A stretch of 35,166 bases of DNA. Origin: Acrocarpospora macrocephala. Lineage in GTDB: Bacteria; Actinomycetota; Actinomycetes; Streptosporangiales; Streptosporangiaceae. Below the pieces are notes generated by a model. It searched no databases. It worked only from the letters and a program-made list of their open reading frames with translations, and was not told where the DNA came from. This document shows positions 4,107 through 34,897 of the stretch, piece after piece. Made by a program: the position numbers and the translations under genes. The number at the start of each line of letters is the position of its first letter. Positions within the stretch are counted from its first letter, which is position 1. The stretch lies in NCBI RefSeq assembly GCF_009687865.1, contig NZ_BLAE01000014.1:1-35166 (forward strand). The letters run 5' to 3'.

Positions 4107-4185
4107 ACAGGTTCCGGGATGTTCGTGCTGCCCTGGAACGGTTTCCGGCGGCGCGGCGGTGGACTCAAGTGGGGGCCTACAGGCG

Positions 4186-7710
<3,525 letters not shown>

Positions 7711-9778: not shown

Positions 9779-11107
<1,329 letters not shown>

Positions 11108-11801: not shown

Positions 11802-12296
11802 ATGGTTGATCAAGGTGACCTGGCCGCGGTCGAGCGGCAGTTGGGGCGGCCACCCCGAGGCGTTCGGGCGGTCGCGCACCGGTGTCCGTGCGGGCTGCCG
11901 GATGTGGTGGAGACCTCGCCCCGGTTGCCCGATGGGTCGCCGTTTCCGACCTTGTTCTACCTGACCTGTCCGAAGGCGGCGTCGGCCATCGGGACGCTGG
12001 AGGCGTCCGGGTTGATGCGGGAGATGACGGCCCGGCTGGAGGATCCCGAGCTGGCGGCCGCCTATCGGGCCGCGCATGAGGATTATGTGGCTCGGCGGGA
12101 CAAGGCGGCGGCTGAGGATGGGCTTGCGCCGTTGCCGCGGGATATGCAGTCGGCCGGGGGTATGCCTGACCGGGTGAAGTGTTTGCATGCCCTGGTCGGT
12201 CACGAACTGGCGGTGCCCGGGATCAACCCGTTCGGGCGGGAGGCTTTGGACTTGCTCCCCGACTGGTGGTCTGATGGGCCTTGCTGCGCGGACTGA
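11802..12296 (+). CDS. DUF501 family protein
   Basis: This 164-residue protein belongs to the conserved actinobacterial DUF501 family, of unknown function. Visible features are HRCPCGLPDVVETSPRLPDGSPFPTLFYLTCP (about 27-58), with Cys residues that could bind a metal, and SAGGMPDRVKCLHALVGHELAVPGINPFGREAL near the C-terminus, with a Cys and two His. It starts at ATG 11802 after AGCGAGGGG and ends 16 bases before ppx, so the two are probably co-transcribed and perhaps coupled. Confidence 0.9.
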   Translation: MVDQGDLAAVERQLGRPPRGVRAVAHRCPCGLPDVVETSPRLPDGSPFPTLFYLTCPKAASAIGTLEASGLMREMTARLEDPELAAAYRAAHEDYVARRDKAAAEDGLAPLPRDMQSAGGMPDRVKCLHALVGHELAVPGINPFGREALDLLPDWWSDGPCCAD

Positions 12297-12312
12297 ACCC
12301 TCGGAGGCATAC

Positions 12313-13293
12313 ATGAGTCGTGTGGCGGCCATCGACTGCGGGACGAACTCGGTTCGCCTGCTGATCACGGACATCAAGGGCGAGACCCAGACCGACCTGG
12401 AACGGCGCATGGAGATCGTCCGCCTGGGTCAGGGCGTCGATCGCACCGGAATGCTCGCGCCTGACGCCCTGCGGCGGACGTTCGACGCGATGTGCGAATA
12501 TCGCCGGTTGATCCGGCGGCATGCGACTCCGCACCTGGCCGGCCCGGTCGGGTTGTTCGTCCCGAGCGCCGGAGTGGCGACGACGGGCCTGCAGTGCGCC
12601 GACCTCATGCCGGTTCGGGTGGTCGCCACCTCGGCCACCCGGGATGCCACCAACCGCGACGAATTCGTCGCGGGCGTACGCGAGATCTTCGGCGTGGACC
12701 CCGAGGTCATCACCGGCCACGAGGAGGCCGAACTCTCCTTCACCGGCGCCACCCGATCGATCTCCGGCATCGAACCCCCCTACCTGGTCGTGGACATCGG
12801 CGGCGGTTCCACCGAATTCGTCCTCGGCAATACGTCCGTGGACGCGGCGCTCTCCGTGGATATCGGCTGTGTGCGCCTCACCGAACGTCACACCGGTCCC
12901 AACGGCCTGGACGTGGCCGGAGTCATCCGCGACGTCGAAGCGGCGCTGGCCCAGGTGGAACAAGTCGTCCCCATCCGCACCGCCAAGACCTTGATCGGCC
13001 TGGCGGGTTCCGTCACCACCGTCGCCGGAATCGCCCTGGACCTCCCCGAATACGACCCCGAGAAGATCCACCACTCCCGCATTCCCGCCGCCCAGGTCCA
13101 CGAGATCGCCTCCCGGCTTCCCCAGATGACCCACGAGCAGCGCGCCGCCATCCCCGTCATGCATCCCGGCCGGGTGGACGTCATCAGCACCGGCGCCACC
13201 ATTCTCGACCAGATCATGCGCCACTACGGCTTCGCTGACGTGGTCGTCAGCGAACACGACATCCTCGACGGAATCGCCTGGTCCATCGCATAA
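12313..13293 (+). CDS. ppx: Ppx/GppA family exopolyphosphatase
   Basis: This 326-residue protein of the actin-like ASKHA fold hydrolyses inorganic polyphosphate and/or the pppGpp pentaphosphate. Phosphate-binding loop 1 is AAIDCGTNSVRLLITDI (about 4-20), the catalytic stretch ITGHEEAELSF is central (about 135-145), and loop 2 is VVDIGGGSTEFVLG (about 160-173). The protein is of the short, single-module actinobacterial type without an HD domain. ATG 12313 is set by GGAGG. It is the last gene of the housekeeping block. Which substrate is preferred cannot be told. Confidence 0.93.
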   Translation: MSRVAAIDCGTNSVRLLITDIKGETQTDLERRMEIVRLGQGVDRTGMLAPDALRRTFDAMCEYRRLIRRHATPHLAGPVGLFVPSAGVATTGLQCADLMPVRVVATSATRDATNRDEFVAGVREIFGVDPEVITGHEEAELSFTGATRSISGIEPPYLVVDIGGGSTEFVLGNTSVDAALSVDIGCVRLTERHTGPNGLDVAGVIRDVEAALAQVEQVVPIRTAKTLIGLAGSVTTVAGIALDLPEYDPEKIHHSRIPAAQVHEIASRLPQMTHEQRAAIPVMHPGRVDVISTGATILDQIMRHYGFADVVVSEHDILDGIAWSIA

Positions 13294-15903: not shown

Positions 15904-16680
15904 ATGAGTTGTGTACCTCCGGGGACCGGTTGGCCCGACGATCCCGCTTCGGCGGATACGCCGGTCGCGCGGGATGCGGCGGAGGTGGTGGAGCTCGCGA
16001 GCGGGAGCCGTACGCTGCGGGAATTGATGGCTCGGGAGTCGGTTTGTCGGGCTTGCCCTCGGTTGGTGGCGTGGCGGGAGGAGGTCGCGGAGGTCAAGCG
16101 GCGGGCGTTCGCGGAGGAGACGTATTGGGGGCGGCCGGTCGCCGGGTGGGGGGATGACGACCCTCGGGTGTTGATTGTCGGGCTTGCTCCGGCGGCGCAT
16201 GGGGGGAATCGCACGGGGCGGATATTTACCGGGGATCGGAGTGGGGACTGGTTGTTCCGGGCGTTGTATCGGGTTGGGCTGGCCGTACAGGAGACGAGCA
16301 CGCACGCCGGGGACGGGCAGCGGCTGATCGGCGCCCGGGTGGTGGCGACGGTGCGCTGCGCGCCGCCGGCGAACAAGCCGACGCCGCAGGAGCGGGACGC
16401 GTGCGCGCCGTGGCTGCTGCGGGAGCTCGGGTTCACCCGGCCGAAGGTGATCGTCGCGCTCGGGGGGTTCGCGTGGCAGGCGATCTGGCCCGCGCTGCGT
16501 TCCGCTGGGTACGCGTTGCCGCCTCGCCGTCCGCCGTTCGGGCATGGAGTCGAGGTCCCGGTCGGGGATGCGGTGCTGCTCGGTTGCTACCACCCGAGCC
16601 AGCAGAACACGTTCACCGGCCGCGTCACGGCCGAGATGCTAGAAACGATCTTCAAGAGAGCCCTCGAACTGAGCTCATAG
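15904..16680 (+). CDS. Family 5 uracil-DNA glycosylase (UdgB type)
   Basis: This 258-residue base-excision repair enzyme removes uracil and some other deaminated bases from DNA. Motif 1 is [25 protein letters not shown] (about 93-117), without the polar catalytic residue of families 1 and 4, which marks family 5. Motif 2 is [10 protein letters not shown] (about 235). Cys 48, 51, 152 and 167 are the probable iron-sulfur ligands. ATG 15904 follows GGGAGG. It is divergent from the P450 gene, and its stop overlaps the convergent O-methyltransferase by 6 bases. Confidence 0.92.
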
Positions 16681-18006: not shown

Positions 18007-18026
18007 CAATCTGAAGGGCGCCTACG

Positions 18027-19355
18027 GTGAACCTCAACGCCAAGCACATCCTCATTGTCGGTGGCGGATATGTCGGGATGTACACCGCCCTGCGTCTCCA
18101 GCGCACGCTGCGCCGCGAACTCCGGTCCGGCCAGGTGCGTGTCACCCTCATCGACCCGCAGTCGTACATGACCTATCAGCCGTTCCTCCCCGAGGCCGCG
18201 GCGGGGAACATCTCCCCGCGCCACGTCGTGGTCCCGCTCCGGCGAGTCCTGCGCGCGACCCGCATCCTCAACGGCCGCGTCTCCAAGATCCACCACGACC
18301 ACAAGAGCGTCACCTTCGAACCGGTCGCGGGCAACCCCCGCGAGATCGAGTACGACATCCTGGTCATGGCCGCCGGATCGATCTCCCGTACGCTCCCGAT
18401 CCCCGGCCTGGCCGAAGCCGCCATCGGGTTCAAGACCATCGCCGAAGCGATCACCTTGCGCAACCGCGTCCTGGGCCTGCTCGACCGCGCCGAATCCAGC
18501 GACGACCCCGAAGTCCGCCGCCGCGCGCTCACCTTCGTGGTGGTCGGCGGTGGTTTCGCTGGCATCGAGGCGCTCGCCGAGCTGGAGGACATGACCGAGG
18601 ACGCGATCAAGTACTACCCGACCATCAAGCGCGCGGACCTGCGCTGGGTGCTGATCGAGGCCAGCGACCGGATCCTGCCCGAGGTCGGGCCCGAGATGGG
18701 CGAGTGGACCGCGCAGGAACTCCGCGGCCGAGGCATCGAGCTGAAAATGGGCACCATGCTGCAGTCCTGCGAGGGCGGCCTGGTCAAAACCTCCGACGGC
18801 GACGAATTCGAATCCGCCACCATCGTCTGGACGGCCGGCGTCAAACCCTCCCCCGTCGTCAACTCCGGCGATCTCCCGCTGGACGAGCGCGGCCGCATCA
18901 TGACCACCACCCGCCTCACCGTCACCGGCGTCAAGGACGCCTTCTCCGCCGGCGACGTGGCCGGCGTCCCCGACGTCACCAAAGCGGGCGAATACTGCGC
19001 CCCCAACGCGCAGCACGCCGTCCGCCAGGCCAAGGTCCTCGGCGACAACATCACCGCCCACCTACGCGGCCGCCCCCTGCGCGTCTACCGCCACCGGTAC
19101 GCGGGCTCGGTCGCCGGCCTCGGCCTGTACCAGGGCGTCGCCAACGTGTACGGGGTAAAGCTTCGCGGATTCCCAGCGTGGTTCATGCACCGCACGTACC
19201 ATCTGTCCAGGGTGCCGACGACGAACCGCAAGGTCCGCGTGCTGGTCGACTGGACACTGTCGCTGTTCTTCAAGCGGGAGACCATCTCCCTGGGCGCGAT
19301 CGAGAACCCACGCCAGGAGTTCAAAGCCGCAGCCGCCACCAACCAGAAGCGCTAA
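18027..19355 (+). CDS. ndh: Type II NADH dehydrogenase (NDH-2)
   Basis: This 442-residue flavoprotein passes electrons from NADH to quinone at the cytoplasmic membrane face without pumping protons. It has the first dinucleotide fold HILIVGGGYVGMYTAL (about 7-22, FAD), the second VVVGGGFAGIEALAEL (about 171-186, NADH), the second FAD contact AFSAGDVAGVPD (about 312) and a C-terminal amphipathic region for membrane contact (RVLVDWTLSLFF). GTG 18027 follows AAGGG. Two Rex operators upstream predict that expression rises when the NADH/NAD ratio is high, which fits the enzyme's job of reoxidising NADH. Confidence 0.95.
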   Translation: MNLNAKHILIVGGGYVGMYTALRLQRTLRRELRSGQVRVTLIDPQSYMTYQPFLPEAAAGNISPRHVVVPLRRVLRATRILNGRVSKIHHDHKSVTFEPVAGNPREIEYDILVMAAGSISRTLPIPGLAEAAIGFKTIAEAITLRNRVLGLLDRAESSDDPEVRRRALTFVVVGGGFAGIEALAELEDMTEDAIKYYPTIKRADLRWVLIEASDRILPEVGPEMGEWTAQELRGRGIELKMGTMLQSCEGGLVKTSDGDEFESATIVWTAGVKPSPVVNSGDLPLDERGRIMTTTRLTVTGVKDAFSAGDVAGVPDVTKAGEYCAPNAQHAVRQAKVLGDNITAHLRGRPLRVYRHRYAGSVAGLGLYQGVANVYGVKLRGFPAWFMHRTYHLSRVPTTNRKVRVLVDWTLSLFFKRETISLGAIENPRQEFKAAAATNQKR

Positions 19356-20141
19356 CCCGACACCCCCGGGCACGACCGACGAACCCCCCTCCTCGGGCGT
19401 CGTGCATCATTTCGCACGCACGCGCGAGAGGGGGCCTACCGAGTGGACCAGCGCCCTCTCCCAACATGCGTTCCCCACGCACACCCGAGAGCGGGCACCC
19501 AACCCACGACCTCCACAGCCGACCACGAGGCCCCGTCGGCCATTTCCCACACGCGTCGACACGCGGCCTCTGCGGCCGACCATGGCGCACGGATACGCGC
19601 CATTTCCAGCACATGTGGACACGCGACCTCTGCGACCGACCACGAGGCCCCGAGACACCAGCCGGCCGTCTCCGGGATGTGTCGACACGCGACCTCCGCG
19701 ACCGACCATCTTGCCCTCCCCGGCGTACACACCAGGCCCGGCCGCGCCGGGCAATCCGACCGGCCCAACCCAGGCGAACAAGATTCCCGGGGGTGGGCCG
19801 GTCCACTGTGCGCCAGTTTTCGATACCTTTTGACCGTGCATCGCCCTGACCGACCTGAGATCGCCTCGTGAACGAGCTGACCTCACCCCCCGCCCCCTCG
19901 CCTGGCACCCCCCACCGAGCGAGCCGCCCGCATGCCCGCCCCCACCATCCCGGCGGCCATCCCCAAGGGCTTTCGTCCCTTTCCTGGCGGTTACTCACAG
20001 TTCACCAAGACTGCTCTGAGACCCACCGCCTCCACCACCCTCTCGCCCCCTCCAAAGACCGCATATTCCCCGACAGGGCAACGGATTCCGGCGCCCGACA
20101 TGCTGTCTAGAAGGGCAAGTTGCGGCGTAAAGTCTCACCAG
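19356..20141. other. Long gene-free stretch between ndh and the tRNA gene
   Basis: About 790 bases without a credible gene. A possible GCACGAC/GTCGTGC stem near 19370-19405 could end the ndh transcript. The middle holds the 60-bp repeat array listed separately. From about 19715 on the plus strand is strongly C-rich. Reading frames here are Pro/Arg/Thr-rich shadows on both strands, without ribosome sites that stand out. A small frame at 19932 (75 codons) has no recognisable family. Confidence 0.6.
19498..19710. repeat. Imperfect tandem repeat of 60-66 bp, four copies
   Basis: A core of type GACACGCGACCTCTGCGACC begins near 19500 (diverged), 19556, 19616 and 19682, followed by GACCA and, in two copies, GAGGCCCCG. 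Some copies also share CCATTTCC before the next core. The spacing is about 60, 60 and 66 bases. In one plus-strand frame the core would read VDTRPLRPT, but spacing that is not always a multiple of three and the lack of a start signal argue for non-coding DNA. Confidence 0.7.
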
Positions 20142-20170
20142 TTACAGATGTGCGCTCCGTGACGTATGAT
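20142..20170 (+). promoter_or_regulatory. tRNA promoter that should start at the mature 5' end
   Basis: TTACAG (20142-20147), exactly 17 bases and TATGAT (20165-20170) form the best sigma-70 type promoter in the window. The seventh base after the -10 box is 20177, the G at position 1 of the tRNA. The primary transcript would therefore need no RNase P cut at its 5' end. Confidence 0.75.
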
Positions 20171-20176
20171 CGCGGC

Positions 20177-20250
20177 GCCCCCGTAGCCCAATGGCAGAGG
20201 CAAGCCCCTTAAAAGGGCTGTTGTGCGGGTTCGACTCCCGCCGGGGGCAC
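20177..20250 (+). tRNA. tRNA with UAA anticodon and short variable loop
   Basis: The cloverleaf is complete. Acceptor stem: GCCCCCG (20177-20183) with CGGGGGC (20242-20248). D arm: GCC/GGC with a GG-containing loop. Anticodon stem: AGCCC (20203-20207) with GGGCT (20215-20219). Loop: CTTAAAA (20208-20214), giving anticodon TAA at 20210-20212. T arm: GCGGG-TTCGACT-CCCGC (20225-20241). The discriminator is A (20249) and CCA is not encoded. The variable region is only GTTGT (20220-20224). Anticodon UAA reads the leucine codon UUA, yet bacterial leucine tRNAs have a long variable arm, so the amino acid identity is uncertain. A decayed integrase lies downstream. Confidence 0.93.
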
Positions 20251-20271
20251 TCTCCGTGACCACTCAAAAAC

Positions 20272-20309
20272 AGCCTGTGACCTGGGGTTTTCCTGGTCAC
20301 AGGCTTCTT
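20272..20309 (+). terminator. Intrinsic terminator of the tRNA transcript
   Basis: AGCCTGTGACC (20272-20282) and GGTCACAGGCT (20295-20305) form a perfect 11-bp stem with a 12-base loop, followed by TCTTG. It begins 22 bases after the tRNA and is also a possible stop for anything arriving from the minus-strand integrase remnant. Confidence 0.8.
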
Positions 20310-20391
20310 GGCGTCTGATCCGGTTGTGTACGGCCGTGGGCGGAGTTCTACGCTTGATCGGGCCGAATACGGGCCCAAGTTTTCAAGGTCA

Positions 20392-20640
20392 TCAGGCCCC
20401 CAGTGCGGCGGCGATTCGCTGCCGAGCGATCTCCTCTTGGCCCGCGAGGACTTCGCATAGACGTTCAGCAGAACGGCGACTGAGTGCCCCGCCCATTCGG
20501 CGACCAGGCACCTGGCCCGGCATGCTTAAGCGTCTGTCGCACCCATGATTCGGGGGTCCCTCCGGCCTCCGGCTGGAGGCCCTGCGCGCCTCCCGGTCGG
20601 GCACCAGGAGGATGGGCCGCCTGTCGTATGCCAAGGTCGC
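20392..20640 (-). pseudogene. Decayed C-terminus of a tyrosine-recombinase integrase
   Basis: Read on the minus strand, 20510 to 20451 gives CLVAEWAGHSVAVLLNVYAK. This is the C-terminal box of actinobacterial phage-type integrases, with the GH of the catalytic set and the Tyr nucleophile in NVYAK. A one-base loss at about 20450 then shifts the frame to VLAGQEEIARQRIAAALGA and a stop at 20392. Upstream, TLKHAGPG (about 20511-20535) lies in a third frame, so there are at least two frameshifts. AYDRR near 20625 may be the trace of the upstream RPYDLRHA-type box. The fragment is about 80 codons and cannot work. Position beside a tRNA gene is classic for an integrated element. Confidence 0.8.
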
Positions 20641-20646
20641 GGCGGG

Positions 20647-22038
20647 TCAGGGGCAGCCGGGGCCGGTTGAGGGGTTGGTGCAGGAGTCGGCTCCTGAGCC
20701 TCCGTTGTTGTAGTTGGTGCCGCCGTCGCCGTTGAGGGTGTCGTTGCCGCTGCCGCCCCAGTGGATGTCGTCGCCTTCGTTGCCATTGAGGGTGTCGTCG
20801 CCGCTGGCGCCGTTCAGGCGGTCGTTGCCGGGGCCTCCGTTGAGGGTGTCCTTGCCCGCGTTGCCGTTGAGGCGGTCGTGGCCCTCGCCGCCGTCGAGGG
20901 TGTCGTTGCCGCTGTGGCCGTTGAGGATGTCGTCGCCGGGACCGCCGATGAGGGTGTCGTTGCCGCCGCGGCCGTTGAGGTGGTCGTTGCCGCCCAGGCC
21001 GCAGATTACGTCGTCGCCGGGGGTGCCGGATAGCGTGTCGGCTGCGGCGGTTCCGGTGATCGTGCAGGGCGGGGTCGGGGCGATTGCCCAGTCTGGTTGG
21101 AAGTCGTGTGCGGGGTTGTTGGTGAGGTTGGTCTGGCTGGTGCCGTTGGGGTTCATGGCGTAGACCTCGAGGTTGCCGTCCCGATCGGTCTGAAAGGCGA
21201 TCTTGGTGCCGTCTGGCGACCACGCCGGCCAGTCGTCAATGGTGGCGTTGTTGGTGAGGTTGATCTGGCTGGTGCCGTTGGGGTTCATCGCGTAGACCTC
21301 GAGGTTGCCGTCCCGATCACTGGGGAAGGCGATCCGGGTGCCGTCCGGCGACCAGGCCGGATGGCTGTCAGTCGCGGCGTTGTTGGTGAGGTTGACCTGG
21401 CCGGTGCCGTTGGCGTTCATGGCGTAGACCTCGCCGTTGCCGTCCCGGTTGCTGCGGAAGGCAATCTTGGTTCCGTCCGGCGACCAGGCCGGATCTCCGT
21501 CATCCCCAGCGTTGTTGGTGAGGTTGGTCGGCGTGCTGCCGTTGGCTCCCATCACATAGACCTCGGAGTTGCCGTCCCGGTCGCTGCGGAAAGCAATCTT
21601 TGTGCCGTCCGGCGACCACGTTGGCGAGCTGTCACTTGCCGCGTTGTTGGTGAGGTTGGTCGGCGCGCTGCCGTCGGCGCCCATCACGTACACATCGAAG
21701 TTGCCGCCGCGGTTACTGATAAAGGCGATTTTGGTACCGTCCGGCGACCACGTCGGCTGGCTGTCATTCGCGGCATTGCTGGTGAGACGTGTTTGCCCGG
21801 TGCCGTCCGCGTTCATGACGTACACCTCGTAGTCGCCATCCCGCTCGCTACCAAACACGATCTTGCCATTGTCGCCCGGAACCACCGCCCCGGCCGGCCT
21901 CGTCTCCACCCCCACAGCCGTGGCCATTGCGGCCACAGCCACGGCCGCCACCGCCCGTACAGAAGACCGCTTAGCGATGCCACACAGTCGCCGCGCACTC
22001 ACCCACCCGGTGGTGCCCGTCACAGTCGCTTCGTTCAT
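20647..22038 (-). CDS. Secreted TolB-like beta-propeller with C-terminal RTX calcium-binding repeats
   Basis: This 463-residue exported protein has a basic N-terminus and hydrophobic signal core (about 24-44), with cleavage likely near 51. It then has six near-identical propeller blades of 42 residues (about 57-330; each with WSPDGTKIAF, DRDGNxEVYxMN and NLTNNA), and a run of about eleven GGxGxDxLx nonapeptides (about 345-450) that in RTX proteins bind calcium outside the cell. No enzyme motif is visible, so a binding or surface role is more likely. The start at 22038 follows AGGGGG; upstream in-frame ATG codons lack such a site. The blades are close copies at DNA level (126-bp units), suggesting recent internal duplication. 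Confidence 0.88.
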   Translation of the reverse strand: MNEATVTGTTGWVSARRLCGIAKRSSVRAVAAVAVAAMATAVGVETRPAGAVVPGDNGKIVFGSERDGDYEVYVMNADGTGQTRLTSNAANDSQPTWSPDGTKIAFISNRGGNFDVYVMGADGSAPTNLTNNAASDSSPTWSPDGTKIAFRSDRDGNSEVYVMGANGSTPTNLTNNAGDDGDPAWSPDGTKIAFRSNRDGNGEVYAMNANGTGQVNLTNNAATDSHPAWSPDGTRIAFPSDRDGNLEVYAMNPNGTSQINLTNNATIDDWPAWSPDGTKIAFQTDRDGNLEVYAMNPNGTSQTNLTNNPAHDFQPDWAIAPTPPCTITGTAAADTLSGTPGDDVICGLGGNDHLNGRGGNDTLIGGPGDDILNGHSGNDTLDGGEGHDRLNGNAGKDTLNGGPGNDRLNGASGDDTLNGNEGDDIHWGGSGNDTLNGDGGTNYNNGGSGADSCTNPSTGPGCP

Positions 22039-22167
22039 CAATTGCCCCCTACGTGCCATCACAGGGAATCCATGGATAGGGGGGTGATCCACAAGACCAT
22101 TTCTCGAGGTCACATGGTACGAGTCAAGACAAGCAAGATCGAGGAAGCTGGCGCCTGCGGGACGCGG

Positions 22168-22200
22168 TGTGGCGCGGCGGTCATGGGCCGCCGCGCCACA
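22168..22200 (-). terminator. Perfect 13-bp hairpin after the xylanase gene
   Basis: TGTGGCGCGGCGG and CCGCCGCGCCACA enclose a seven-base loop, starting 18 bases beyond the xylanase stop in the direction of transcription. It is GC-rich and lacks a U tract, as usual in actinobacteria. It separates the xylanase transcript from the propeller gene, which is on the same strand. Confidence 0.8.
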
Positions 22201-22218
22201 GGTGCGGTGTTTCGAGGG

Positions 22219-23211
22219 TCAGCTTGCGCTGCAGGAGACCGTTGGCCAGGTCGAGTTGCCGTTGCGCTGGATGGTGACGCCCCAGTTGTTGCCGTTGCCG
22301 TTGGGTCTGGCGGTTAGGACTTGGGCGCTGGGGTAGCTGGCGCTGATGTTCCAGGTGGCGATGATCTTCGCTGGGGATGGCACGTTCATCGTCACGGTCC
22401 AGTTGGTGGAGCCGGAGACCGAGACGTTGAGGTTGTAGCGGTCGCTCCACTGCTGACCTGCGGACAGGGATGCGGTGCAGCTTCCGCCGCCGCCCCCACC
22501 ACCGCCGCCGCCCCCGCCGCCACCGGTGCCGCCGATCGTGATGTTGGAGTTGCCGCTGCTCTGGTAGCCCTCGGTGGCGAGGATCATGTAGTCATGGCTG
22601 CCCAGACTCATTCCCCTGCTGGCCCATGCGTCGAAGTGGTTGCCGCTAGTTATGGTTCCGCCTGTTTTCTTCGACTGCCGGACGCTCCAGTACTGCTGGA
22701 AAGTTCTGGTGCCTTCGATGGAGGGCGCGTTGGTGCGCGTCGTCTGGTAGATGTCGTACGTGCCGCCATCGCTGGTAACTGTGCCCTTGAATGTTCCGGT
22801 GGGCCGATAAGTGCCCCAGTTGTCGACGATGTAGTACTCGATGAGTGGGTTTCTCGTCCAGCCGTAGAGGGTCAGGTATGCGTTGCCGGACGGGTTGAAG
22901 CTGCCGGAATAGGTCACGCTTCTGCGTCCGCCGGTGCTCCAGCCCTTACCTGCAACGAAATTCCCCGTGTTGCTCCATGAGGTGCTGTAATTGCCGCCGG
23001 ACCCCAGTTCCATGGAGACCGTCCCCTGGCTGTCAGTCCAGAAGGAATAGAAGTAGCCGTTATTGGTGCCGGTCTGGTTTGTGGTGACGGCCGCGTGGGC
23101 GATGCCGGGCATCATCGTGACCAGGGCCAGCGCCGCGGCCCAGACGCCGCCGATGAGCAGCCTGGTGCGGCCGCGTCTGCGGCTCTTCGGGTGGGCGGGG
23201 GAGTCGTTCAT
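22219..23211 (-). CDS. GH11 endo-1,4-beta-xylanase with CBM2
   Basis: This 330-residue secreted enzyme cleaves beta-1,4-xylan. A signal peptide (1-40, ending AHA-A) is followed by a glycoside hydrolase family 11 jelly roll (about 42-228) with nucleophile Glu125 in [13 protein letters not shown] and acid/base Glu214 in [10 protein letters not shown] linker of 14 glycines follows, then a carbohydrate-binding module of family 2 (about 245-330) with the spaced tryptophans and the terminal Cys pair. ATG 23211 is supported by GAGGAG upstream; the frame runs open to 23454, but that part is non-coding. The domain order matches secreted actinomycete xylanases. The long leader suggests control by transcription and mRNA structure. 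Confidence 0.96.
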
Positions 23212-23422
23212 GTGCGTGCTTCTCCTCGTGAAGGCCGGCCGGGGGAGGCCGGGCAGCGCGATACGACCCGACGGGAGCTGTCGGTGGACAGGGTGAGAGC
23301 CGCCGCGCGTCGGCGCCGTACAACGCGGCGGAGGTGCCCGGTCGTCGTGTGGTCGACGGCCGGAGGACCAGGTCGGGGCGCGTGACCTGGATCGACAGTG
23401 GTTGCGGTCTGTCGATGGTGAA

Positions 23423-23464
23423 AGTGTGTGTCGACTCCATCGAGCTGTCAACAACTTTCAGAAA
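23423..23464 (-). promoter_or_regulatory. Putative xylanase promoter with TTTC-A-GAAA palindrome
   Basis: On the minus strand TTGACA (23446-23451) is followed after 17 bases by CACACT (23423-23428). Directly upstream is the palindrome TTTCAGAAA (23456-23464), and about 160 bases further up is GAAAGTTTC (23622-23630). GAAA-N-TTTC inverted repeats are known from Streptomyces xylanase promoters, where they mediate repression. The leader would be about 205 bases, and the -10 box is weak. Confidence 0.4.
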
Positions 23465-23824
23465 CATATCGGAAATCTGATCTTGATTGGTGGTTCATTG
23501 ATGATGCGTTTGGCCTGTTCACTGACCTCTTCTGGACGATCGAGATCGAGGTTGATCGGTAGAGACTTCTTTTGGGTGATCAAAAACGGGCCAGTTGTGC
23601 CGAAAGTTGGGCTATATTTCCGAAAGTTTCAGAGAGTCCTCTGATCATGCTGCGCGCGGTGCGATGGGGTAGAGCATGATCGTGGCCGGCCTGTCGTGGC
23701 GGATGTCGGCCGCTCGTCCTTGCCACAACCGCGTCAAGAAGGTGGCGTTTGACCGCGCCGTCGCGCTGCTTGCGGATCACTACAAGGCGGAAACTAATGT
23801 TCTAAAAACGCCCGTATACGGTCT
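23465..23824. other. Intergenic stretch between xylanase and dipeptidase genes
   Basis: This stretch is less GC-rich than its surroundings. It holds the GAAAGTTTC site at 23622-23630 and an inverted repeat GATCATGCT (23643-23651) / AGCATGATC (23673-23681). A 54-codon frame from ATG 23676 (MIVAGLSWRMSAARP at its start) ends at 23840 with no ribosome site and no recognised family. It could be a worn gene fragment. Confidence 0.45.
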
Positions 23825-23853
23825 TTGTAGAGCTCTTTGAGGGGTCATATAGG
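23825..23853 (+). promoter_or_regulatory. Promoter of the dipeptidase gene
   Basis: TTGTAG (23825-23830), 17 bases and TATAGG (23848-23853) predict a start near 23860 and a leader of about 80 bases that contains the hairpin at 23883-23914. Confidence 0.5.
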
Positions 23854-23882
23854 CGTCTCGCGAAGTCTTCTCCATGTCAGTG

Positions 23883-23914
23883 ATGACCGGCTCCCGATAT
23901 GTGGAGCCGGTCAT
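23883..23914 (+). promoter_or_regulatory. Perfect 12-bp leader hairpin before the dipeptidase gene
   Basis: ATGACCGGCTCC and GGAGCCGGTCAT enclose an eight-base loop CGATATGT. The hairpin lies between promoter and start codon, ends 25 bases before the ATG and precedes the GGAAAGAAG ribosome site. It could attenuate transcription, bind a protein or, as DNA, be an operator. It is not followed by a U tract. Confidence 0.6.
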
Positions 23915-23939
23915 TCTCATCTCTGGAAAGAAGCGCAGG

Positions 23940-24590
23940 ATGTCAGAAATCGTGCTGTTGTCGGACCCCAGAATCCGCGACCTCGCCGTCGCTGAATGCG
24001 GCGAGCCGCTGGTCGACCTGCGTGCCCAGGGCGGCTTCCGGCTCGACCCACGCCTCGCCGACCCGGCCGGCGCCTTCGCGCACGTACGGCACAGCGTCGC
24101 CGACCGCCTGCGGACGGTTCAGGACGGGTTGCCCGGCCAGCTCCGGCTGCTCGTGGTGGAGGGCTATCGCCCGTACCGGCTTCAGGAGCGGTATTTCCAG
24201 GAGTCGCTCGACGAGCTGCGCGCGGCGCGGCCGGGCTGGACCGAGGGGCAACTCCGCGCCGAGACGGCCCGTTACATCTCGCCGCCCGAGGTCGCGCCGC
24301 ACGTGGCCGGAGCCGCCGTCGACCTGACCCTCTGCACACCGGACGGTACGGAACTCCCCATGGGCACCGAAGTCAACGCCACCCCGGTGGGCACGGAAGG
24401 CCCCTGCTACACCGATTCCCCGGACATCTCCCCAGCGGAGCGAAAGAACCGCCAGATCCTCATCGACGCCCTCACCGCGTCAGGCTTCGTCAACTACCCC
24501 ACCGAGTGGTGGCATTGGTCCTACGGCGACCGCTACTGGGCTTTCGTCACCGGAACCGCCACCGCCATGTACGGCCCCGCCCGCCAGTAA
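23940..24590 (+). CDS. D-alanyl-D-alanine dipeptidase (VanX type, peptidase M15D)
   Basis: This 216-residue zinc dipeptidase hydrolyses D-Ala-D-Ala. It has the zinc ligands His121 and Asp128 (PHVAGAAVDLTL) and His192 in the catalytic ExWH stretch EWWHWSYGD (Glu189), plus the conserved Arg in EGYRPYR (about 77). No signal peptide is seen, so it is cytoplasmic, as for VanX. ATG 23940 gives the usual family start; an in-frame ATG at 23874 would translate the leader hairpin. No vanH, vanA or vanRS gene adjoins it, so a role in peptidoglycan turnover is as likely as glycopeptide resistance. It ends 4 bases before the convergent SARP stop. Confidence 0.9.
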   Translation: MSEIVLLSDPRIRDLAVAECGEPLVDLRAQGGFRLDPRLADPAGAFAHVRHSVADRLRTVQDGLPGQLRLLVVEGYRPYRLQERYFQESLDELRAARPGWTEGQLRAETARYISPPEVAPHVAGAAVDLTLCTPDGTELPMGTEVNATPVGTEGPCYTDSPDISPAERKNRQILIDALTASGFVNYPTEWWHWSYGDRYWAFVTGTATAMYGPARQ

Positions 24591-24594
24591 CGAC

Positions 24595-27500
24595 TCACCA
24601 CGGCAGGTCGAGCCGCGCGGGCGCCCCACCCGCCCCGGTCAACTCGGCGAGCTCCCGCGCCTCGTACCGGCGGAACATCTCGATCGCCTGCTCCCGTACC
24701 ACCTCGGCCTGGCCGGAGTCCCCGGCCAGGTCCAGCGCGGTGGCAAGATCGCGCCTGGCCCTGGCCGCGGGCAGCGGCGTGCCCAGCGCGTCGGACAGCG
24801 CGATGGCCGCGGCCAGCTCCGTCCGGGCCTCCACCAGCCGTCCCCCGGCCAGATGCAACTCGCCGATGGTGCGGAGCAGCAACGCCTGCCCCCACCGGTC
24901 GAGCTGGCCACGGCAAACCTCCAGCGCCTCCTCCAGCGGCGCGAGCATGGCCTCCCCCCGCCCCAGCCTGATCCGGGTCTTGGCCAGGGCCTGCACGCCG
25001 TACGCGGCCATGAACTGGTCGCCGAGCTCGTGGAACATCCGCAGCGCGGCCTCGCACGCCTGCTCGGCCCGCGCATGATCGCCGACCGCCCGGTAGGCCA
25101 GCCCGATCGTGCGCACGGTCAGCGCCTCCCCGCGCCTGCTCCCCACCCGCCGGTACGCCGCCAGCGCCTCGGCCAGCAACGGCGGCAGCCGGTCGAAGTC
25201 GCCGAGCTCCAGGTGCACGGTGGCCGACAGCCGCGCCGCGTGCCCGATGGCGGCGTCGTCGCCGAGCGTACGGAAGATCTCGACCGCCCGGCCGAGGTGG
25301 GTGAGCGCCTCCCGCAGCCGGCACTGCTCCCGGCGCGCGTTGCCCATCCCGGCCAGGACGGCGGCTTCGCCCCGGACGTCGCCCGCCGCCGCGTACCGGG
25401 ACAGGGCCTGCTCGTAGTAGGTGGTCGCATCCTCGTAGCGGTCCATCTCGTAGTAGATCTGCCCGTGCGCGGCCAGCAGCGTGGCCTCGCCCATCTGGTT
25501 CCCTGACCGGCGGGCGGCGGCGAGCGCGGCGTCGTGGCTGCGGCTCCACTCGGCCAGCCGGGAGCCGACGAAGAACACCGAGAAGGAGAGCGCGACCGAC
25601 AGGTCGCAGGCGGCCACGTCCAGGTCCATCCCGGCGGCTCGCTCGACCGCCGCGATGAGGGCCGGCGTCTCCGCCTCCAGCCACGCCACCGGATCGGACG
25701 GCAGCCGCCTGACCAGGTCGTCGTCGACCGGGCGTGCGGTGCTGTACTCGCGGCGGAGCGGGATCTCGCCGGGCGGGGTACGTTCGGCGATCCGCGAGAT
25801 CAGGAACACCCAGTTGCCCAGCACGCGCCCGACCGCCGCCCGCAGGTCCGCCTCCGACTCCTCCTGCTGGGCCCGCTCCCTGGCGTACACCCGGAGCAGT
25901 TCGTGCAGCCGGTAGCGGACCTGGCCGACCGCGTCGACCGCGACGAAGTCCAGCAGTTGCGCGTCGACCAGCCGTTCCACCACGTCCTCGGCGGCGCGCG
26001 GCGGCAGGTCGAGCAGGGGCGCGGCGATCCAGGCCGGGAAGTCGGGGCCGCCCAGCACCGCCAGCCGCCGGAACGCCGCCTTGGCCTCCTCATCCAGCAA
26101 CCGGTAGCTGAAGGCGACGCTGGAGCGCACCTCCAGATCACCGGCGGACAGCTCGTCCAGCCGCCAGCGCTCGTCGCTCAGCCGGTCGACCAGCACGCTC
26201 AACGGCCAGTGGCGACGCGTGTTCAGCCGCCCCCCGGCCGTACGCACGGCCAGCGGTAACCCCCCGCAGAGCCGCACGATCTCGCCTGCGGCCGCACGTT
26301 CCGCCGCAACCCGATCGGAGCCGACGATCCCGGCGAGCAGGTCCAAGGCAGCCGGCTCAGCCATGACCTCCAGGTCAATCGCCCGAGCTCCGCCCAGACC
26401 AGGGAACCTGCCCCGCGCGGTGACCAGGACCGCGCAGCCCCTCCCGGCGGGCAGCAGCGGCCGGACCTGCCGCTCGGAGCGCGCGTCGTCGAGCACCACC
26501 AGCACCCGCCGCTGGGACAGCAGGCTCCGGTAGAGATCGAGCCGATCCTGGAACGAATCCGGCAGCGAGCCGGGCTCCACCCCAAGCGCGCGCAGGAAGC
26601 GGGCCAGCACCTCCTCAGGCCCGGCGGGCAGATCGGTGCACCCGCGCATGTCCGCGAAGAGCTGTCCATCCGGGTACGCCCCTGACACCGCGTGCGCCAC
26701 GAACACGGCCAGCGCGGACTTGCCCACCCCGCCCTTCCCGCAGATCACGAAGACCGGCGGCGCGTTCCCCGCCACCACGAGCCCGTCCACGATCTCGCCG
26801 ACCAGCTCCTCCCGGCCGGTGAAGTCGGGCACGCTGGGCGGGAGCTGGGCGGGGATCACCGCGCGCCCCTGCGCCTCGGCTATGGTCACCGGCGGGCTTT
26901 CCTGGGCGAGAGGCTCGCCGCGGAGGATCGTCGCGTGCAAGCGTTGCAGGTCAGGGCCGGGGTCGAGGCCGAGTTCCGCGGCGAGTGCCCGCCTCCCCTC
27001 GTGGTAGACGGCCAGTGCCTCGCTCTGGCGGCCGAGGCCGTACAGGGCGGTCATCAGCTGGCCGCGGGCGCGCTCGCGCAGCGGATGCGCGCCGACCAGC
27101 GCGGTGAGCTCGGCCACGGTCGCGCCGTAGCGGCCCAGGAGCAGTTCGGCGGCGACCCGCTCCTCGGTCACCTCCAGGCGCTTGTGGTCCAGGGCGGCGG
27201 CCTCGGTCCGCAGGGCCTCGCCGATCCCGCCCAGCGAGTCGCCGTGCCACAACTTCAGGGCGTCGCCGAACGCCTGCGCCGCCTCGTCCGCGCGTCCGGC
27301 GCGGGCGGCCGAGCGGCCCTCGCCGACCAGCCGGTCGAACACCAGCTGGTCCAGCTGGTCCTCGCGCAGCTGGAGCAGGTAGCCGGGCGGGCGGGTCTCG
27401 ATCACCTCGGGCTGGCCGGGGACGGTCAGGCCGCGCCGGAGGGTGGAGACGTAGGTCTGGATGGACGCCCGCGCCGACCCGGGCGGCCGTTCGTCCCAGA

Positions 27501-27879: not shown

Positions 27880-28671
27880 ATGGTGGAGAGCAGGAACCCG
27901 ATATTTAGTCGGCGGGGGAGCGTCGGCCAGCAGGGCTGGTCGGGACCCGCGCCGAGTCCTCAGCAGCTGAACGAGATGTACAACGCGCCGTCGTACGCGC
28001 CGCCGACGATTTCGCGGACCATGACGATGGACGACGTCGTCATGAAGGGCTTCATCGTCCTTGGGGTGATCCTCGCTACGGCCGGTACTTCCTGGTACCT
28101 GGGCTGGGGGATCGGGATCGGGGTCGGGGCCGCGCTGGTGGCCCTCGTGCTCGGATTGATCGTTTCCTTCACCCAGCGGCCGAATCCGGCGCTGGTGCTG
28201 GGTTACGCGGCCTTCGAGGGCGTGTTCCTCGGGGTGATCAGTAACTTCTTCGAGGCCCGCTACCCCGGGATCGTGTTGCAGGCCGTGATCGGCACGATGA
28301 TGGCCTTCCTCGGCACGCTCGCGGTCTACTCGCTGAAGATCTTCCGGCCGACGCCGAAGTTCACCAAGTTCGTGATCGGCGCGGCGATCGCCGCGGTCGG
28401 TCTGATCCTGGTGAATCTCATCGCGAGTTTCTTCGTGGACGGCGGGCTCGGGCTGCGGTCCGGCGGGCCGCTGGCGATCGCGTTCAGCGTCGGCATGATC
28501 CTGCTGGGCTGCTTCTTCCTGCTCCTCGACTTCGACCAGATCAACGAGGGCGTGCGGGCCGGGGTGCCGGAGAAGTTCTCCTGGCTGATGGCCTTCGGCC
28601 TGGCGCTCAGCCTGGTCTGGATCTACCTGGAGGTCCTGCGGCTGCTGAGCTACTTCAGCGGCGACGACTGA
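27880..28671 (+). CDS. Bax inhibitor-1/YccA family membrane protein
   Basis: This 263-residue polytopic membrane protein has a polar N-terminus of about 45 residues (VESRNPIFSRRG) followed by about seven membrane helices and the C-terminal FDQINEGVRAGVPEKFSWLMAFGLALSLVWIYLEVLRLLS, which includes the acidic residues linked to calcium/proton passage in the family. Its role in actinobacteria is not known. ATG 27880 overlaps the GGAGG region closely; GTG 27883, one codon later, is better spaced and equally likely. A terminator follows the stop. Confidence 0.92.
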   Translation: MVESRNPIFSRRGSVGQQGWSGPAPSPQQLNEMYNAPSYAPPTISRTMTMDDVVMKGFIVLGVILATAGTSWYLGWGIGIGVGAALVALVLGLIVSFTQRPNPALVLGYAAFEGVFLGVISNFFEARYPGIVLQAVIGTMMAFLGTLAVYSLKIFRPTPKFTKFVIGAAIAAVGLILVNLIASFFVDGGLGLRSGGPLAIAFSVGMILLGCFFLLLDFDQINEGVRAGVPEKFSWLMAFGLALSLVWIYLEVLRLLSYFSGDD

Positions 28672-29720: not shown

Positions 29721-30938
29721 TCAGCTGAGCCGCTCCAGGATCATGGCCATGCCCTGCCCGCCGCCCACGCACATGGTCTCCAGGCCGATCGCCTTGTCGT
29801 GGAACTGCAGGCTGTTGATCAGTGTCGAGGTGATGCGCGCCCCGGTCATCCCGAACGGATGCCCCACCGCGATCGCGCCGCCGTTCACGTTCAGCCGGTC
29901 CAGGTCGATCCCGAGCTCCTGGTAGGACGGGATGACCTGGGCCGCGAACGCCTCGTTGATCTCGACCAGGTCGACGTCCCCGATGGCCATCCCGGCCCGC
30001 GCCAGCGCCCGCCGGGAAGCCTCCACCGGCCCAAGCCCCATGATCTCCGGCGACAGACCGGTCACCCCGGTCGACACCACCCGGGCCAGCGGCGTGATGC
30101 CCAGCTCCGCGGCCTTGGTGTCGCTCATCACGACCACGGCCGCCGCGCCGTCGTTGAGCGGGCAGCAGTTGCCCGCGGTGACCGTGCCGTCCGGCCGGAA
30201 CACCGGCTTCAGCTGGGACACCGCCTCATACGTGGTGCCCGCCCGCGGCCCGTCGTCCTTGCTGATCACGGTCCCGTCGGGCAGCGTCGCCGGGGTGATG
30301 TCCCGCTCCCAGAAGCCGTTGGCCAGCGCCTTCTCGGCCAGATTCTGGGACCGTACCCCGAATTCGTCCTGCTCCTTGCGGGACACCGACCGGAGCGAGG
30401 CCACGTTCTCCGCGGTCTGCCCCATCGCGATGTAGACATCGGGCAGCAGCCCGTCCTCGCGCGGATCGTGCCACACCCCGGCCCCGCCCGCGGCGGCCGC
30501 GTCGGTACGGCCCTTCGCGTCCAGGAACACGCTGTTCATGGCGTCAGGCAGGTCGGCCGCCCCACTACCGTATCGGGACACGCACTCGACCCCGGCCGAC
30601 ACGAAGATGTCGCCCTCCCCGGCTTTGATCGCGTGGAATGCCATCCGCGTGGTCTGCAACGACGACGAGCAGTAGCGCTGGACGGTCGTCCCCGCCACCC
30701 CGTCCAGCCCGAGCCGCACCGCGACCACCCGGGCGATGTTGAATCCCTGCTCCCCGGCCGGCTGGCCGCAGCCGACCATGATGTCGTCGATCGTGGCAGG
30801 ATCCAGCTGCGGGACCTTCGCCAGCGCGGCGCTGATCATCTGTACGGTCAGGTCGTCCGGACGGATGTCCTTGAGCGACCCCTTGAAGGCGCGGCCGATC
30901 GGCGAGCGCGCGGTCGCGACGATGACTGCCTCGGGCAT
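29721..30938 (-). CDS. Acetyl-CoA acyltransferase (thiolase)
   Basis: This 405-residue thiolase condenses or cleaves acyl-CoA and acetyl-CoA. It has the nucleophile Cys90 in VQRYCSSSLQ, His360 in NVNGGAIAVGHPFGMTGAR and the second Cys390 in CVGGGQGMAMI, in the normal places, and the usual length. It could serve fatty acid degradation (FadA type) or acetoacetyl-CoA synthesis; no hydroxyacyl-CoA dehydrogenase adjoins it to decide. ATG 30938 follows AGGAGAG. A palindromic site upstream suggests control by a TetR-type repressor. Confidence 0.94.
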   Translation of the reverse strand: MPEAVIVATARSPIGRAFKGSLKDIRPDDLTVQMISAALAKVPQLDPATIDDIMVGCGQPAGEQGFNIARVVAVRLGLDGVAGTTVQRYCSSSLQTTRMAFHAIKAGEGDIFVSAGVECVSRYGSGAADLPDAMNSVFLDAKGRTDAAAAGGAGVWHDPREDGLLPDVYIAMGQTAENVASLRSVSRKEQDEFGVRSQNLAEKALANGFWERDITPATLPDGTVISKDDGPRAGTTYEAVSQLKPVFRPDGTVTAGNCCPLNDGAAAVVVMSDTKAAELGITPLARVVSTGVTGLSPEIMGLGPVEASRRALARAGMAIGDVDLVEINEAFAAQVIPSYQELGIDLDRLNVNGGAIAVGHPFGMTGARITSTLINSLQFHDKAIGLETMCVGGGQGMAMILERLS

Positions 30939-33413: not shown

Positions 33414-33526
33414 ATACGGTGTGAGACAGAAACTAGCCGAGTCCTGGCCACCCCCTCGGGACCCCGGCTACCGGCAGGCTGACAAAGCTTCGGCAAAACG
33501 CTCCAGTACAAAAGGTGGTTCTCGCG

Positions 33527-34897
33527 GTGCGCGTACACGATTCGCTGATCGAGTTGATGGGCAACACCCCGCTCGTACGGCTGCGCAAGGTTGCGGCGGG
33601 CGCTCCCGCCCAGGTTCTGGCCAAGGTGGAGTATTTCAACCCCGGTGGCTCGGTGAAGGACCGCATCGCGGTGCGGATGGTCGAGGCGGCCGAGAAGAGC
33701 GGCGCGCTCGTTCCCGGCGGCACGATTGTCGAGCCTACCTCGGGGAACACCGGGGTCGGGCTGGCCATCGTGGCGCAGGAGCGAGGGTACAAGTGCCTGT
33801 TCGTCTGCCCGGACAAGGTGGCCCAGGACAAGATCGCGGTGCTCCGGGCGTACGGGGCGGAGGTCGTCGTGTGCCCGACCGCGGTGTCGCCCGATCATCC
33901 GGATTCGTACTATTCGGTGTCGGATCGGCTGGCGCGGGATGTGCCGAACGCGTGGAAGCCGGATCAGTACTCGAATCCGGAGAATCCGGCCAGTCACTAC
34001 TATTCGACCGGGCCTGAGCTGTGGGAGCAGACCGACGGGCGGATCACGCATTTCGTCGCGGGCATCGGGACCGGCGGGACGATCAGCGGGACCGGGCGGT
34101 TCCTCAAGGAGGTGTCCGGCGGGCGGGTCCAGGTGATCGGGGCCGATCCGGAAGGGTCGGTGTATTCCGGCGGAACCGGGCGGCCATACCTGGTGGAAGG
34201 GGTCGGGGAGGACATCTGGCCGGCCACCTACGACACCACGATCTGCGACGAGATCATCGCCGTCTCGGACAAGGACTCGTTCGGGATGACCCGGCGGCTG
34301 GCCCGCGAGGAAGCCCTGCTGGTGGGCGGTTCGTGCGGGATGGCCGTGGTCGCGGCGCTGCGCGTGGCCGAGCGGGCCGGACCCGACGACATCGTGGTGG
34401 TCCTGCTGCCGGACAGCGGCCGCGGCTACCTGTCCAAGATCTTCAACGACGAGTGGATGGCCGACTACGGCTTCCTGTCCACCGCCGACGACGAGGGCAT
34501 GGTCCGCGACGTACTCAGCCGCAAAACCGGCGTCCTCCCCGAATTCGTCCACGTCCACCCGCACGAATCGGTCGGTACGGCTATCGCGATCATGCGCGAG
34601 TACAGCGTCTCCCAACTCCCCGTCATGAAGGAGGAACCCCCGGTGATGGCCGCCGAAGTGGTCGGCTCCATCGTCGAACGCGACCTCTTGGACGGCCTCT
34701 ACCGCGGCAAAGTCCGCGCCGAGGACCCCCTGGGCGACCACATGTCCGCCCCCCTCCCCATGATCGGCTCCGGCGAACCAGTAGCCCGCGCAGTCGACGC
34801 CCTAGAAAAAGCCGACGCCGCCGTAGTCCTAGACGACGGCAAACCCATCGGCCTCCTCACCCGCCAGGACCTCCTAACCTTCCTCGCAACCCACTAG
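33527..34897 (+). CDS. cbs: Cystathionine beta-synthase
   Basis: This 456-residue PLP enzyme joins serine and homocysteine to cystathionine in reverse transsulfuration. The PLP lysine is Lys44 in NPGGSVKDRIAVRM; PTSGNTGVGLA and the phosphate loop GIGTGGTISG are present. Two C-terminal CBS domains (about 330-456) follow, the last ending DDGKPIGLLTRQDLLTFLATH, which separates it from plain cysteine synthase. No heme-binding N-terminal extension is seen. GTG 33527 is chosen because AAAAGG lies about ten bases upstream; an in-frame GTG at 33515 is too near. Cystathionine gamma-lyase is not in the window. Confidence 0.93.
   Translation: MRVHDSLIELMGNTPLVRLRKVAAGAPAQVLAKVEYFNPGGSVKDRIAVRMVEAAEKSGALVPGGTIVEPTSGNTGVGLAIVAQERGYKCLFVCPDKVAQDKIAVLRAYGAEVVVCPTAVSPDHPDSYYSVSDRLARDVPNAWKPDQYSNPENPASHYYSTGPELWEQTDGRITHFVAGIGTGGTISGTGRFLKEVSGGRVQVIGADPEGSVYSGGTGRPYLVEGVGEDIWPATYDTTICDEIIAVSDKDSFGMTRRLAREEALLVGGSCGMAVVAALRVAERAGPDDIVVVLLPDSGRGYLSKIFNDEWMADYGFLSTADDEGMVRDVLSRKTGVLPEFVHVHPHESVGTAIAIMREYSVSQLPVMKEEPPVMAAEVVGSIVERDLLDGLYRGKVRAEDPLGDHMSAPLPMIGSGEPVARAVDALEKADAAVVLDDGKPIGLLTRQDLLTFLATH

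What the first reader, a model, noticed from the sequence alone, without database searches (positions are those of the whole stretch)
20177..20250. A class I tRNA that carries a UAA anticodon
The cloverleaf is perfect, with anticodon TAA at 20210-20212, yet the variable region is five bases. Leucine tRNAs in bacteria have a long variable arm, and the actinomycete UUA reader (BldA) is of that kind. So this is either a leucine tRNA of abnormal form or a tRNA charged with another amino acid that would decode UUA, with the A73 discriminator and GCCCCCG acceptor as the main identity clues. A second UUA decoder beside the developmental one could reassign or modulate rare UUA codons.
Basis: partly seen in the sequence, partly recalled or inferred. 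Interest (0 to 1): 0.78.

Follow-up and report, generated by a model that had tools for sequence, protein, structure and literature searches.

The report
BldA counterpart lacking its long arm
This gene makes the transfer RNA that reads the rare leucine codon UUA in this actinomycete; it sits in the same chromosomal slot as the famous Streptomyces regulator BldA but lacks the long side arm that bacterial leucine tRNAs are said always to carry, a short form that turns out to be common in actinobacteria.

Summary
In detail: window 20177-20249 is an intact class I tRNA, anticodon UAA, five-base variable region. The reading as a second or reassigning UUA decoder is not supported. In the window's 12.1-Mb genome it is the only UAA-anticodon tRNA among 63 found; UUA, UUG and CUA each have only a class I leucine tRNA there, while class II forms were found only for CAG and GAG. 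The gene lies in an old block (mfd, eno, DUF501, ppx, UDG, oxidoreductase, tRNA, Bax-inhibitor-like, thiolase, CBS). Class II, BldA-type UAA tRNAs of other actinomycetes occupy the same slot, so the two are positional orthologues that differ in the variable arm. Of 118 genomes of the class, 69 show the class I UAA gene, 27 the class II gene, none both, 22 neither pattern. UUA codons near class I genes of other species align with leucine like other leucine codons. The tRNA keeps the E. coli leucine determinants (A73, A14, A15-U48, G18G19, A20a). So it is an ordinary tRNA-Leu by all indirect signs, in an extraordinary shape. A 2023 review says leucine tRNAs lack the long arm only in animal mitochondria; I found the bacterial form only in passing remarks.

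The parts
20177..20249 (+). class I tRNA-Leu(UAA), complete cloverleaf, A73, CCA not encoded
20210..20212 (+). anticodon UAA
20220..20224 (+). five-base variable region GUUGU; U48 stands opposite A15 (Levitt position)
20141..20170 (+). promoter-like site GTTACA - 18 nt - TATGAT; TATGAT is present in 11 of 11 aligned family loci (own included), GTTACA in only six of them
20272..20305 (+). 11-bp perfect inverted repeat with 12-nt loop just after the tRNA, terminator-like but without a T run; the terminator scan did not list it
   Evidence: read
4159..7710 (+). mfd, transcription-repair coupling factor (conserved block)
9830..11107 (+). eno, enolase (conserved block)
11802..12296 (+). DUF501 protein (conserved block)
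12187..13293 (+). Ppx/GppA phosphatase (conserved block)
15904..16680 (+). uracil-DNA glycosylase superfamily protein (conserved block)
18015..19352 (+). pyridine nucleotide-disulphide oxidoreductase, upstream neighbour of the UAA tRNA in class I and class II genomes
27880..28671 (+). Bax inhibitor 1-like protein, conserved downstream flank of the slot
29721..30938 (-). acetyl-CoA C-acetyltransferase (thiolase), conserved downstream flank
33515..34897 (+). cystathionine beta-synthase, conserved downstream flank

Best explanation
The gene encodes the functional and only tRNA-Leu(UAA) of this organism. It is charged with leucine by the one LeuRS found in the genome and reads all UUA codons (and possibly UUG by wobble). 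It is the positional orthologue of Streptomyces bldA: the same chromosomal tRNA-Leu(UAA) gene, with a five-base class I variable region where other lineages have the long class II arm. This works because bacterial LeuRS recognises A73 and the D/T-loop core (A14, A15-U48, G18G19, A20a), which the class I form keeps, and not the variable arm. Shown here: structure, sole occurrence in the assembly, conservation, shared slot with class II genes, leucine-like use of UUA in class I carriers. Inferred: charging by LeuRS, expression, and that the arm was lost rather than gained.
For: Intact cloverleaf. All 63 RF00005 matches of the own genome were read: Leu anticodons are class I UAA, CAA, UAG, class II CAG, GAG, plus extra class I GAG and CAG in an array; no class II UAA, CAA or UAG. 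Single-contig G034: its seven long tRNAs include only CAG and GAG for Leu, and UAA, CAA, UAG are class I; a third class II-like D-arm match there is not a tRNA. G016 and single-contig G025: CAA class II, UAA and UAG class I. In 118 class genomes 69 have class I UAA and 27 class II UAA, 0 both, 22 neither pattern; an intact class II tRNA was confirmed by ARAGORN in 27 of 27. Slot: the tRNA lies within 5 kb downstream of the oxidoreductase gene on the same strand in 61 of 64 class I loci with that gene in view, and downstream on the same strand in 11 of 11 class II loci, 46 to 5934 nt away. UUA in 42 of 119 named class I loci: 254 codons, 60% Leu at aligned residues not themselves encoded by UUA; conserved columns 51 of 57 Leu, against CUG 906 of 1135. 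Leucine determinants present (determinants from passages of PMC9976931). Core nearest to class I Leu(CAA) 0.80 and class II Leu(UAA) 0.78, next isotype Glu 0.69. In the loci held this D-arm body carries Leu anticodons in 231 of 232 ARAGORN calls (overlapping loci counted), the exception L056 being a misread C33 form.
Against: No charging, expression or proteomic data. The codon test uses neighbours of the tRNA in other species, not this genome. In the own genome only six UUA sites could be aligned with G036: four to other Leu codons, one to UUA, one to Tyr in a 34%-identity likely paralogue; and two UUA codons of G036 face Phe and Cys in the own genome. A14, A15-U48, A73 and a matching D loop also occur in the genome's tRNA-Lys(UUU), so they are not unique to Leu. 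Three of 64 class I loci do not show the slot (L236, L258, L315), and two of 15 intact class II loci (L383, L387) share no block gene. The own assembly has 166 contigs (98.6% complete), so a hidden second UAA tRNA is not strictly excluded.
Confidence: 0.92

Rival explanations
1. It is a class I tRNA of another amino acid that acquired a UAA anticodon and so inserts a non-leucine residue at UUA (programmed mistranslation, like the Streptomyces proline tRNAs with Asn or Thr anticodons, recalled).
For: Class I shape; such hybrid tRNAs have been reported from bacteria (a commentary seen only as a listing with the start of its abstract, PMC10365949).
Against: Core closest to leucine tRNAs, including class II UAA; leucine determinants kept; related class I bodies carry Leu anticodons; UUA reads as Leu in class I carriers; shares the slot of class II UAA genes; no synthetase among the flanking genes that I annotated.
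Confidence: 0.03
2. It is an additional UUA decoder working beside a BldA-type class II tRNA and modulating UUA-dependent genes.
For: Streptomyces genomes have a class II UAA tRNA, and bldA-like genes also sit on Streptomyces plasmids.
Against: No class II UAA tRNA in the own genome or among the long tRNAs of G034, G016, G025; none of 118 class genomes showed both forms.
Confidence: 0.03
3. It is a decaying tRNA copy or an attachment-site remnant.
For: A 3'-half copy with about 240 nt of flank exists elsewhere (G000:C37:57792-57835), with an integrase gene about 6 kb away, so this tRNA has probably served as an integration site.
Against: The window copy is complete, 97-100% conserved in the genus, syntenic across the family and has a conserved -10-like element; it is the half copy that is the remnant.
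Confidence: 0.02

Closest known systems
BldA, class II tRNA-Leu(UAA) of Streptomyces
   Same: Same anticodon, same slot downstream of the oxidoreductase gene in Streptomyces-like G057 and G155, similar core (class II UAA mean 0.75 identity outside anticodon and variable region), one UAA gene per genome in six Streptomyces (table in passages of PMC4932002)
   Different: Long variable arm in BldA, five bases here; BldA is a developmental switch in Streptomycineae, whereas outside them UUA is reported also in growth genes (passages of PMC4255298)
Animal mitochondrial tRNA-Leu
   Same: Leucine tRNAs without a long variable arm, with A73 and A14 as main determinants (passages of PMC9976931)
   Different: Organellar and, in the human UUR form, partly unfolded; here a full cloverleaf encoded in a bacterial chromosome
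Short-variable-loop tRNA-Leu(UAG) of the tRNA cluster of Mycobacterium mucogenicum relatives
   Same: Class I leucine tRNA in an actinobacterium (passage of PMC6582537)
   Different: An extra copy in a cluster described as horizontally acquired, beside a normal class II gene; here the chromosomal sole isoacceptor
[quoted passage not shown]
   Same: Same D-loop, A15-U48, A73, short variable region
   Different: Anticodon and acceptor stem

Membership tests
tRNA-Leu(UAA) isoacceptor | complete tRNA with UAA anticodon | tested here: met
tRNA-Leu(UAA) isoacceptor | bacterial leucine determinants A73, A14, A15-U48, G18G19, A20a | tested here: met
   determinants as given in passages of PMC9976931
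tRNA-Leu(UAA) isoacceptor | UUA codons used as leucine in carriers | tested here: met
   51 of 57 conserved columns Leu, UUA sites from 42 of 119 loci of other species; own genome too few sites
tRNA-Leu(UAA) isoacceptor | charged with leucine by LeuRS | not testable with these tools
   one LeuRS above the family cut-off is listed for the genome, G000:C77
class II (long variable arm) tRNA, BldA form | variable arm of 10 or more bases | tested here: not met
   five bases
bldA orthologue by position | same gene order around the gene | tested here: met
   13 of 15 intact class II loci examined lie in the same block, all 11 with the oxidoreductase gene in view downstream of it on the same strand
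bldA orthologue by function | developmental control through UUA codons | not tested
   26 of 150 sampled own ORFs contain UUA, which does not look like a small dedicated regulon
mistranslating hybrid tRNAs of Streptomyces/Kitasatospora | proline-tRNA body next to a ProRS gene or fragment (features recalled) | tested here: not met
   core is leucine-like; no synthetase among the annotated window genes, which are not all ORFs of the window

The most novel reading that the evidence does not exclude
In Actinomycetia the long variable arm of leucine tRNAs is dispensable and has changed in place, isoacceptor by isoacceptor and more than once, at the orthologous tRNA-Leu(UAA) locus, so that in the majority of sampled genomes the BldA counterpart is a class I tRNA and the textbook class II BldA is the minority form; in part of one order this UUA reader has even exchanged the near-universal U33 for C33.
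Probability: 0.65. Interest if true: 0.65.

Novelty: new variant of a known kind. Interest (0 to 1): 0.55.

Why it matters
A long variable arm is treated as a standing feature of leucine tRNAs outside animal mitochondria (stated so in PMC9976931, passage). A chromosomal, sole, orthologous class I tRNA-Leu(UAA) across many actinobacterial genera is a natural experiment on what LeuRS really needs, on how Leu and Ser tRNAs are kept apart, and on whether BldA's regulatory role depends on its class II shape. It also warns that rules which use the arm to assign leucine identity can misjudge such genes.

Tried and rejected
Second UUA decoder: rejected for lack of any class II UAA gene beside a class I one. 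Ten extra class II Leu-like D-arm matches were read: three are Leu tRNAs (CAA in G030, UAG in G038, CAG in G019), seven are not called as tRNAs (G034, G031, G015, G001, G008, G026, G037). Reassignment to another amino acid: rejected on the codon and core comparisons. Link between class I UAA and one LeuRS type: LeuRS hits come in a form matched from the start of the profile in one stretch and a form split at position 142/143 (an insertion), but both occur with either tRNA class (class I: G042, G050 unsplit, G043, G058 split; class II: G041, G051 unsplit, G057, G052 split), so no dedicated LeuRS is implied. Phylogeny of tRNA cores: 65 columns, 80 of 152 inner branches open, class state needs 2 changes among Leu rows; not leaned on. 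Oxidoreductase-protein tree (quick method): class state needs 4 changes, at least 2 forced by well-supported branches; direction not tested. Terminator scan: no hit, although an inverted repeat is visible. Literature: ten searches; only passing mentions of short-loop Leu tRNAs in mycobacteria were found, one of them implicit (PMC11541572 passages: long loops named for tRNALeu-2, 3 and 5 of M. tuberculosis). Most subscription papers are not in that library. The Codetta screen (PMC8629427, passages) has no occurrence of 'UUA'; PMC4524478, PMC6297222 and PMC11559606 (passages) added nothing on the point.

Full report
WHAT IS THERE. Window 20177-20249 (+) encodes a complete tRNA with anticodon UAA and a five-base variable region. 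The acceptor, anticodon and T stems pair fully; the D stem has three pairs with C13 and A22 unpaired. The 3' CCA is not encoded. A promoter-like site (GTTACA-18-TATGAT) ends at 20170, six bases short of the tRNA; the scan found one such site against 0.1 expected, and TATGAT stands at that place in 11 of 11 aligned family loci, own included.

IT IS THE ONLY UUA READER FOUND. The window lies in a 12.1-Mb, 166-contig genome. The Rfam tRNA model finds 63 tRNAs, and the sequences of all 63 places were read with ARAGORN. Leucine anticodons: class I UAA (window), CAA, UAG; class II CAG and GAG; and additional class I GAG and CAG in a tRNA array on contig 46. No class II UAA, CAA or UAG was seen. The single-contig relative G034 has class I UAA, CAA and UAG, and among its seven long tRNAs only CAG and GAG are Leu; a third class II-like D-arm match in G034 is not a tRNA. 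G016 (2 contigs) and G025 (1 contig) have class I UAA and UAG but a class II CAA, and no class II UAA among their eight long tRNAs each. A Streptomyces-like genome, G057, shows another mosaic: class II UAA, class I CAA; its UAA tRNA matches 12 records of the plasmid collection, all Streptomyces.

HOW WIDESPREAD. The pattern asked for a class I spacing, so this shows spread, not frequency. In an even sample of 118 genomes of the class (own included), the class I UAA pattern is in 70 and the class II pattern in 29. After dropping one and two genomes whose match is not a tRNA the numbers are 69 and 27, no genome in both, 22 in neither. An intact class II tRNA was confirmed in all 27; most of the 69 were judged from the matched 3' half. 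The patterns demand CTTAAA and so miss C33 forms.

SAME GENE AS bldA. The window tRNA follows mfd, eno, a DUF501 gene, ppx, a UDG-superfamily gene and a pyridine nucleotide-disulphide oxidoreductase gene and precedes a Bax-inhibitor-like gene, a thiolase and cystathionine beta-synthase. I fetched the surroundings of one class II match from 16 of the 27 class II genomes. One of them (L384, G052) proved to be a 3'-half copy only, leaving 15 intact class II loci. 13 of the 15 lie in the same block: in all 11 with the oxidoreductase gene in view the tRNA is downstream of it on the same strand, 46 to 5934 nt away, and in L380 and L382 it lies between ppx and the Bax-inhibitor-like gene; L383 and L387 share no block gene. 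Among class I loci the oxidoreductase gene is in view in 64 of 149 (119 named, 30 relatives), and the tRNA lies within 5 kb downstream of it on the same strand in 61 of these 64; many of the named loci are too short to show the block. The class I tRNA and the BldA-type tRNA are therefore positional orthologues. On a tree of the oxidoreductase the class state changes at least four times, two of them forced by well-supported branches. That class II is ancestral is inference from its general distribution in bacteria, not tested here.

WHICH AMINO ACID. (a) The tRNA keeps the E. coli leucine determinants listed in PMC9976931 (passages read): A73, A14, A15-U48, G18G19, A20a; that review also says the long arm is not a leucine determinant in E. 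coli. The own class I Leu tRNAs share A14, A15, A73 and U48, except the array GAG copy, which has C48; tRNA-Lys(UUU) also shares them. (b) Outside anticodon and variable region, its nearest relatives after other class I UAA genes are class I Leu(CAA) 0.80 and class II Leu(UAA) 0.78 (mean 0.75 over 5); the best other isotype is Glu 0.69; the non-Leu set was the own genome only. (c) In the loci held, tRNAs with this D-arm body carry Leu anticodons in 231 of 232 ARAGORN calls, the exception being a misread C33 form. Most of those loci were fetched with UAA, CAA or UAG queries and some overlap, so this count leans that way; but the full own set of 63 shows no other anticodon on this body either. 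(d) Codon test on the named class I loci: 107 of 119 had homologous ORFs, 458 ORFs kept, 125,511 codons aligned. Leaving out aligned residues that are themselves encoded by the tested codon, 254 UUA codons in 42 loci face Leu 60% of the time (CUG 53%, AUA 15%), and conserved columns are Leu in 51 of 57 cases (CUG 906 of 1135). The test assumes that these genomes have no class II UAA gene, as the 118-genome sample suggests. (e) In the own genome against relative G036, six UUA sites could be aligned: four to other Leu codons, one to UUA, one to Tyr in a 34% likely paralogue; conversely two G036 UUA codons face Phe and Cys. One LeuRS above the family cut-off is listed for the genome.

USE OF UUA. 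In 300 kb of own sequence, 26 of 150 heuristically called ORFs contain UUA (0.54 per 1000 codons), more than in 200-kb samples of G034 (9 of 109), G025 (5 of 100) and G057 (9 of 93) taken the same way; the own sample also has slightly lower G+C (68.3% against 70.3-71.2%). UUA here does not look like a marker of a small developmental regulon, in line with the statement in PMC4255298 (passages) that outside Streptomycineae UUA codons lack the positional bias and sometimes occur in conserved growth-associated genes.

WHAT IS KNOWN. [quoted passage not shown] A mycobacterial comparison notes one short-loop tRNA-Leu(UAG) in a mobile cluster (PMC6582537 passage), and a toxin paper names long loops only for some M. 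tuberculosis leucine tRNAs (PMC11541572 passages). I found no description of class I leucine tRNAs as regular chromosomal isoacceptors of actinobacteria in the searches, in a library without most subscription papers.

VERDICT. The gene is, by all indirect evidence, the normal tRNA-Leu(UAA) of this lineage and BldA's counterpart by position; what is surprising is its shape, which departs from a general rule and is widespread.

Noticed in passing
L052, L054-L060 (family and order relatives); G025:C1:1382986-1383059: The class I UAA tRNA has C33 instead of the near-universal U33 (loop CCUAAAA) in 8 of 30 loci fetched; single-contig G025 has this form and no class II UAA, and UUA was rarest there of four genomes sampled (6 of 41,403 codons).
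   Followed up: partly
G000:C37:57792-57835 (L068:2550-2836): A 3'-half copy of the tRNA plus about 240 nt of downstream flank (88.6% identical to window 20205-20492), with an integrase gene about 6 kb away and HMUDK_hel-domain and NACHT-domain genes between: probably an attachment-site remnant of an element that uses this tRNA.
   Followed up: partly
G052:C1:154170, 233536, 407850 and G096:C26:2460 (L384, L448, L449, L451): 3'-half matches to class II UAA tRNA that ARAGORN does not call as tRNAs, beside an intact copy in each genome: the class II gene too seems to serve as an integration site.
   Followed up: partly
G000:C46:53179-53608 (L071:3180-3610): Array of tRNAs with extra class I Leu(GAG) and Leu(CAG), an odd Ser(CGA) and two Glu; the other genome copies of GAG and CAG are class II. 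A similar class I GAG/CAG pair is in L180.
   Followed up: no
G000:C6:176111-176276 (L062): Two adjacent low-scoring, divergent tRNA-like genes called Tyr(GTA) and Pro(TGG).
   Followed up: no
window 20465-27699: Between the tRNA and the Bax-inhibitor-like gene no orthologous pair was found with the G036 piece compared; ORFs there match PD40 propeller/RTX repeats, a GH11 xylanase, an M15 peptidase and a BTAD/NB-ARC/TPR regulator.
   Followed up: partly
60 genomes: LeuRS comes in two forms, one with an insertion near profile position 142; some genomes (G006, G015, G035, G037) seem to hold both.
   Followed up: no
phage records PV764938.1 and MK240575.1: Relatives of this tRNA in Sinorhizobium phage Phosso (annotated tRNA-Leu(taa)) and, unannotated, in Thermobifida phage P318.
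   Followed up: partly
plasmid collection: Class II bldA-like tRNA matches occur on 12 plasmid records, all Streptomyces.
   Followed up: no
L234, L237, L252, L297: Class I UAA tRNAs, mostly with different acceptor stems, in metagenome bins labelled Planctomycetota, Rokuibacteriota, Deltaproteobacteria and Acidobacteria; misbinning not excluded.
   Followed up: no
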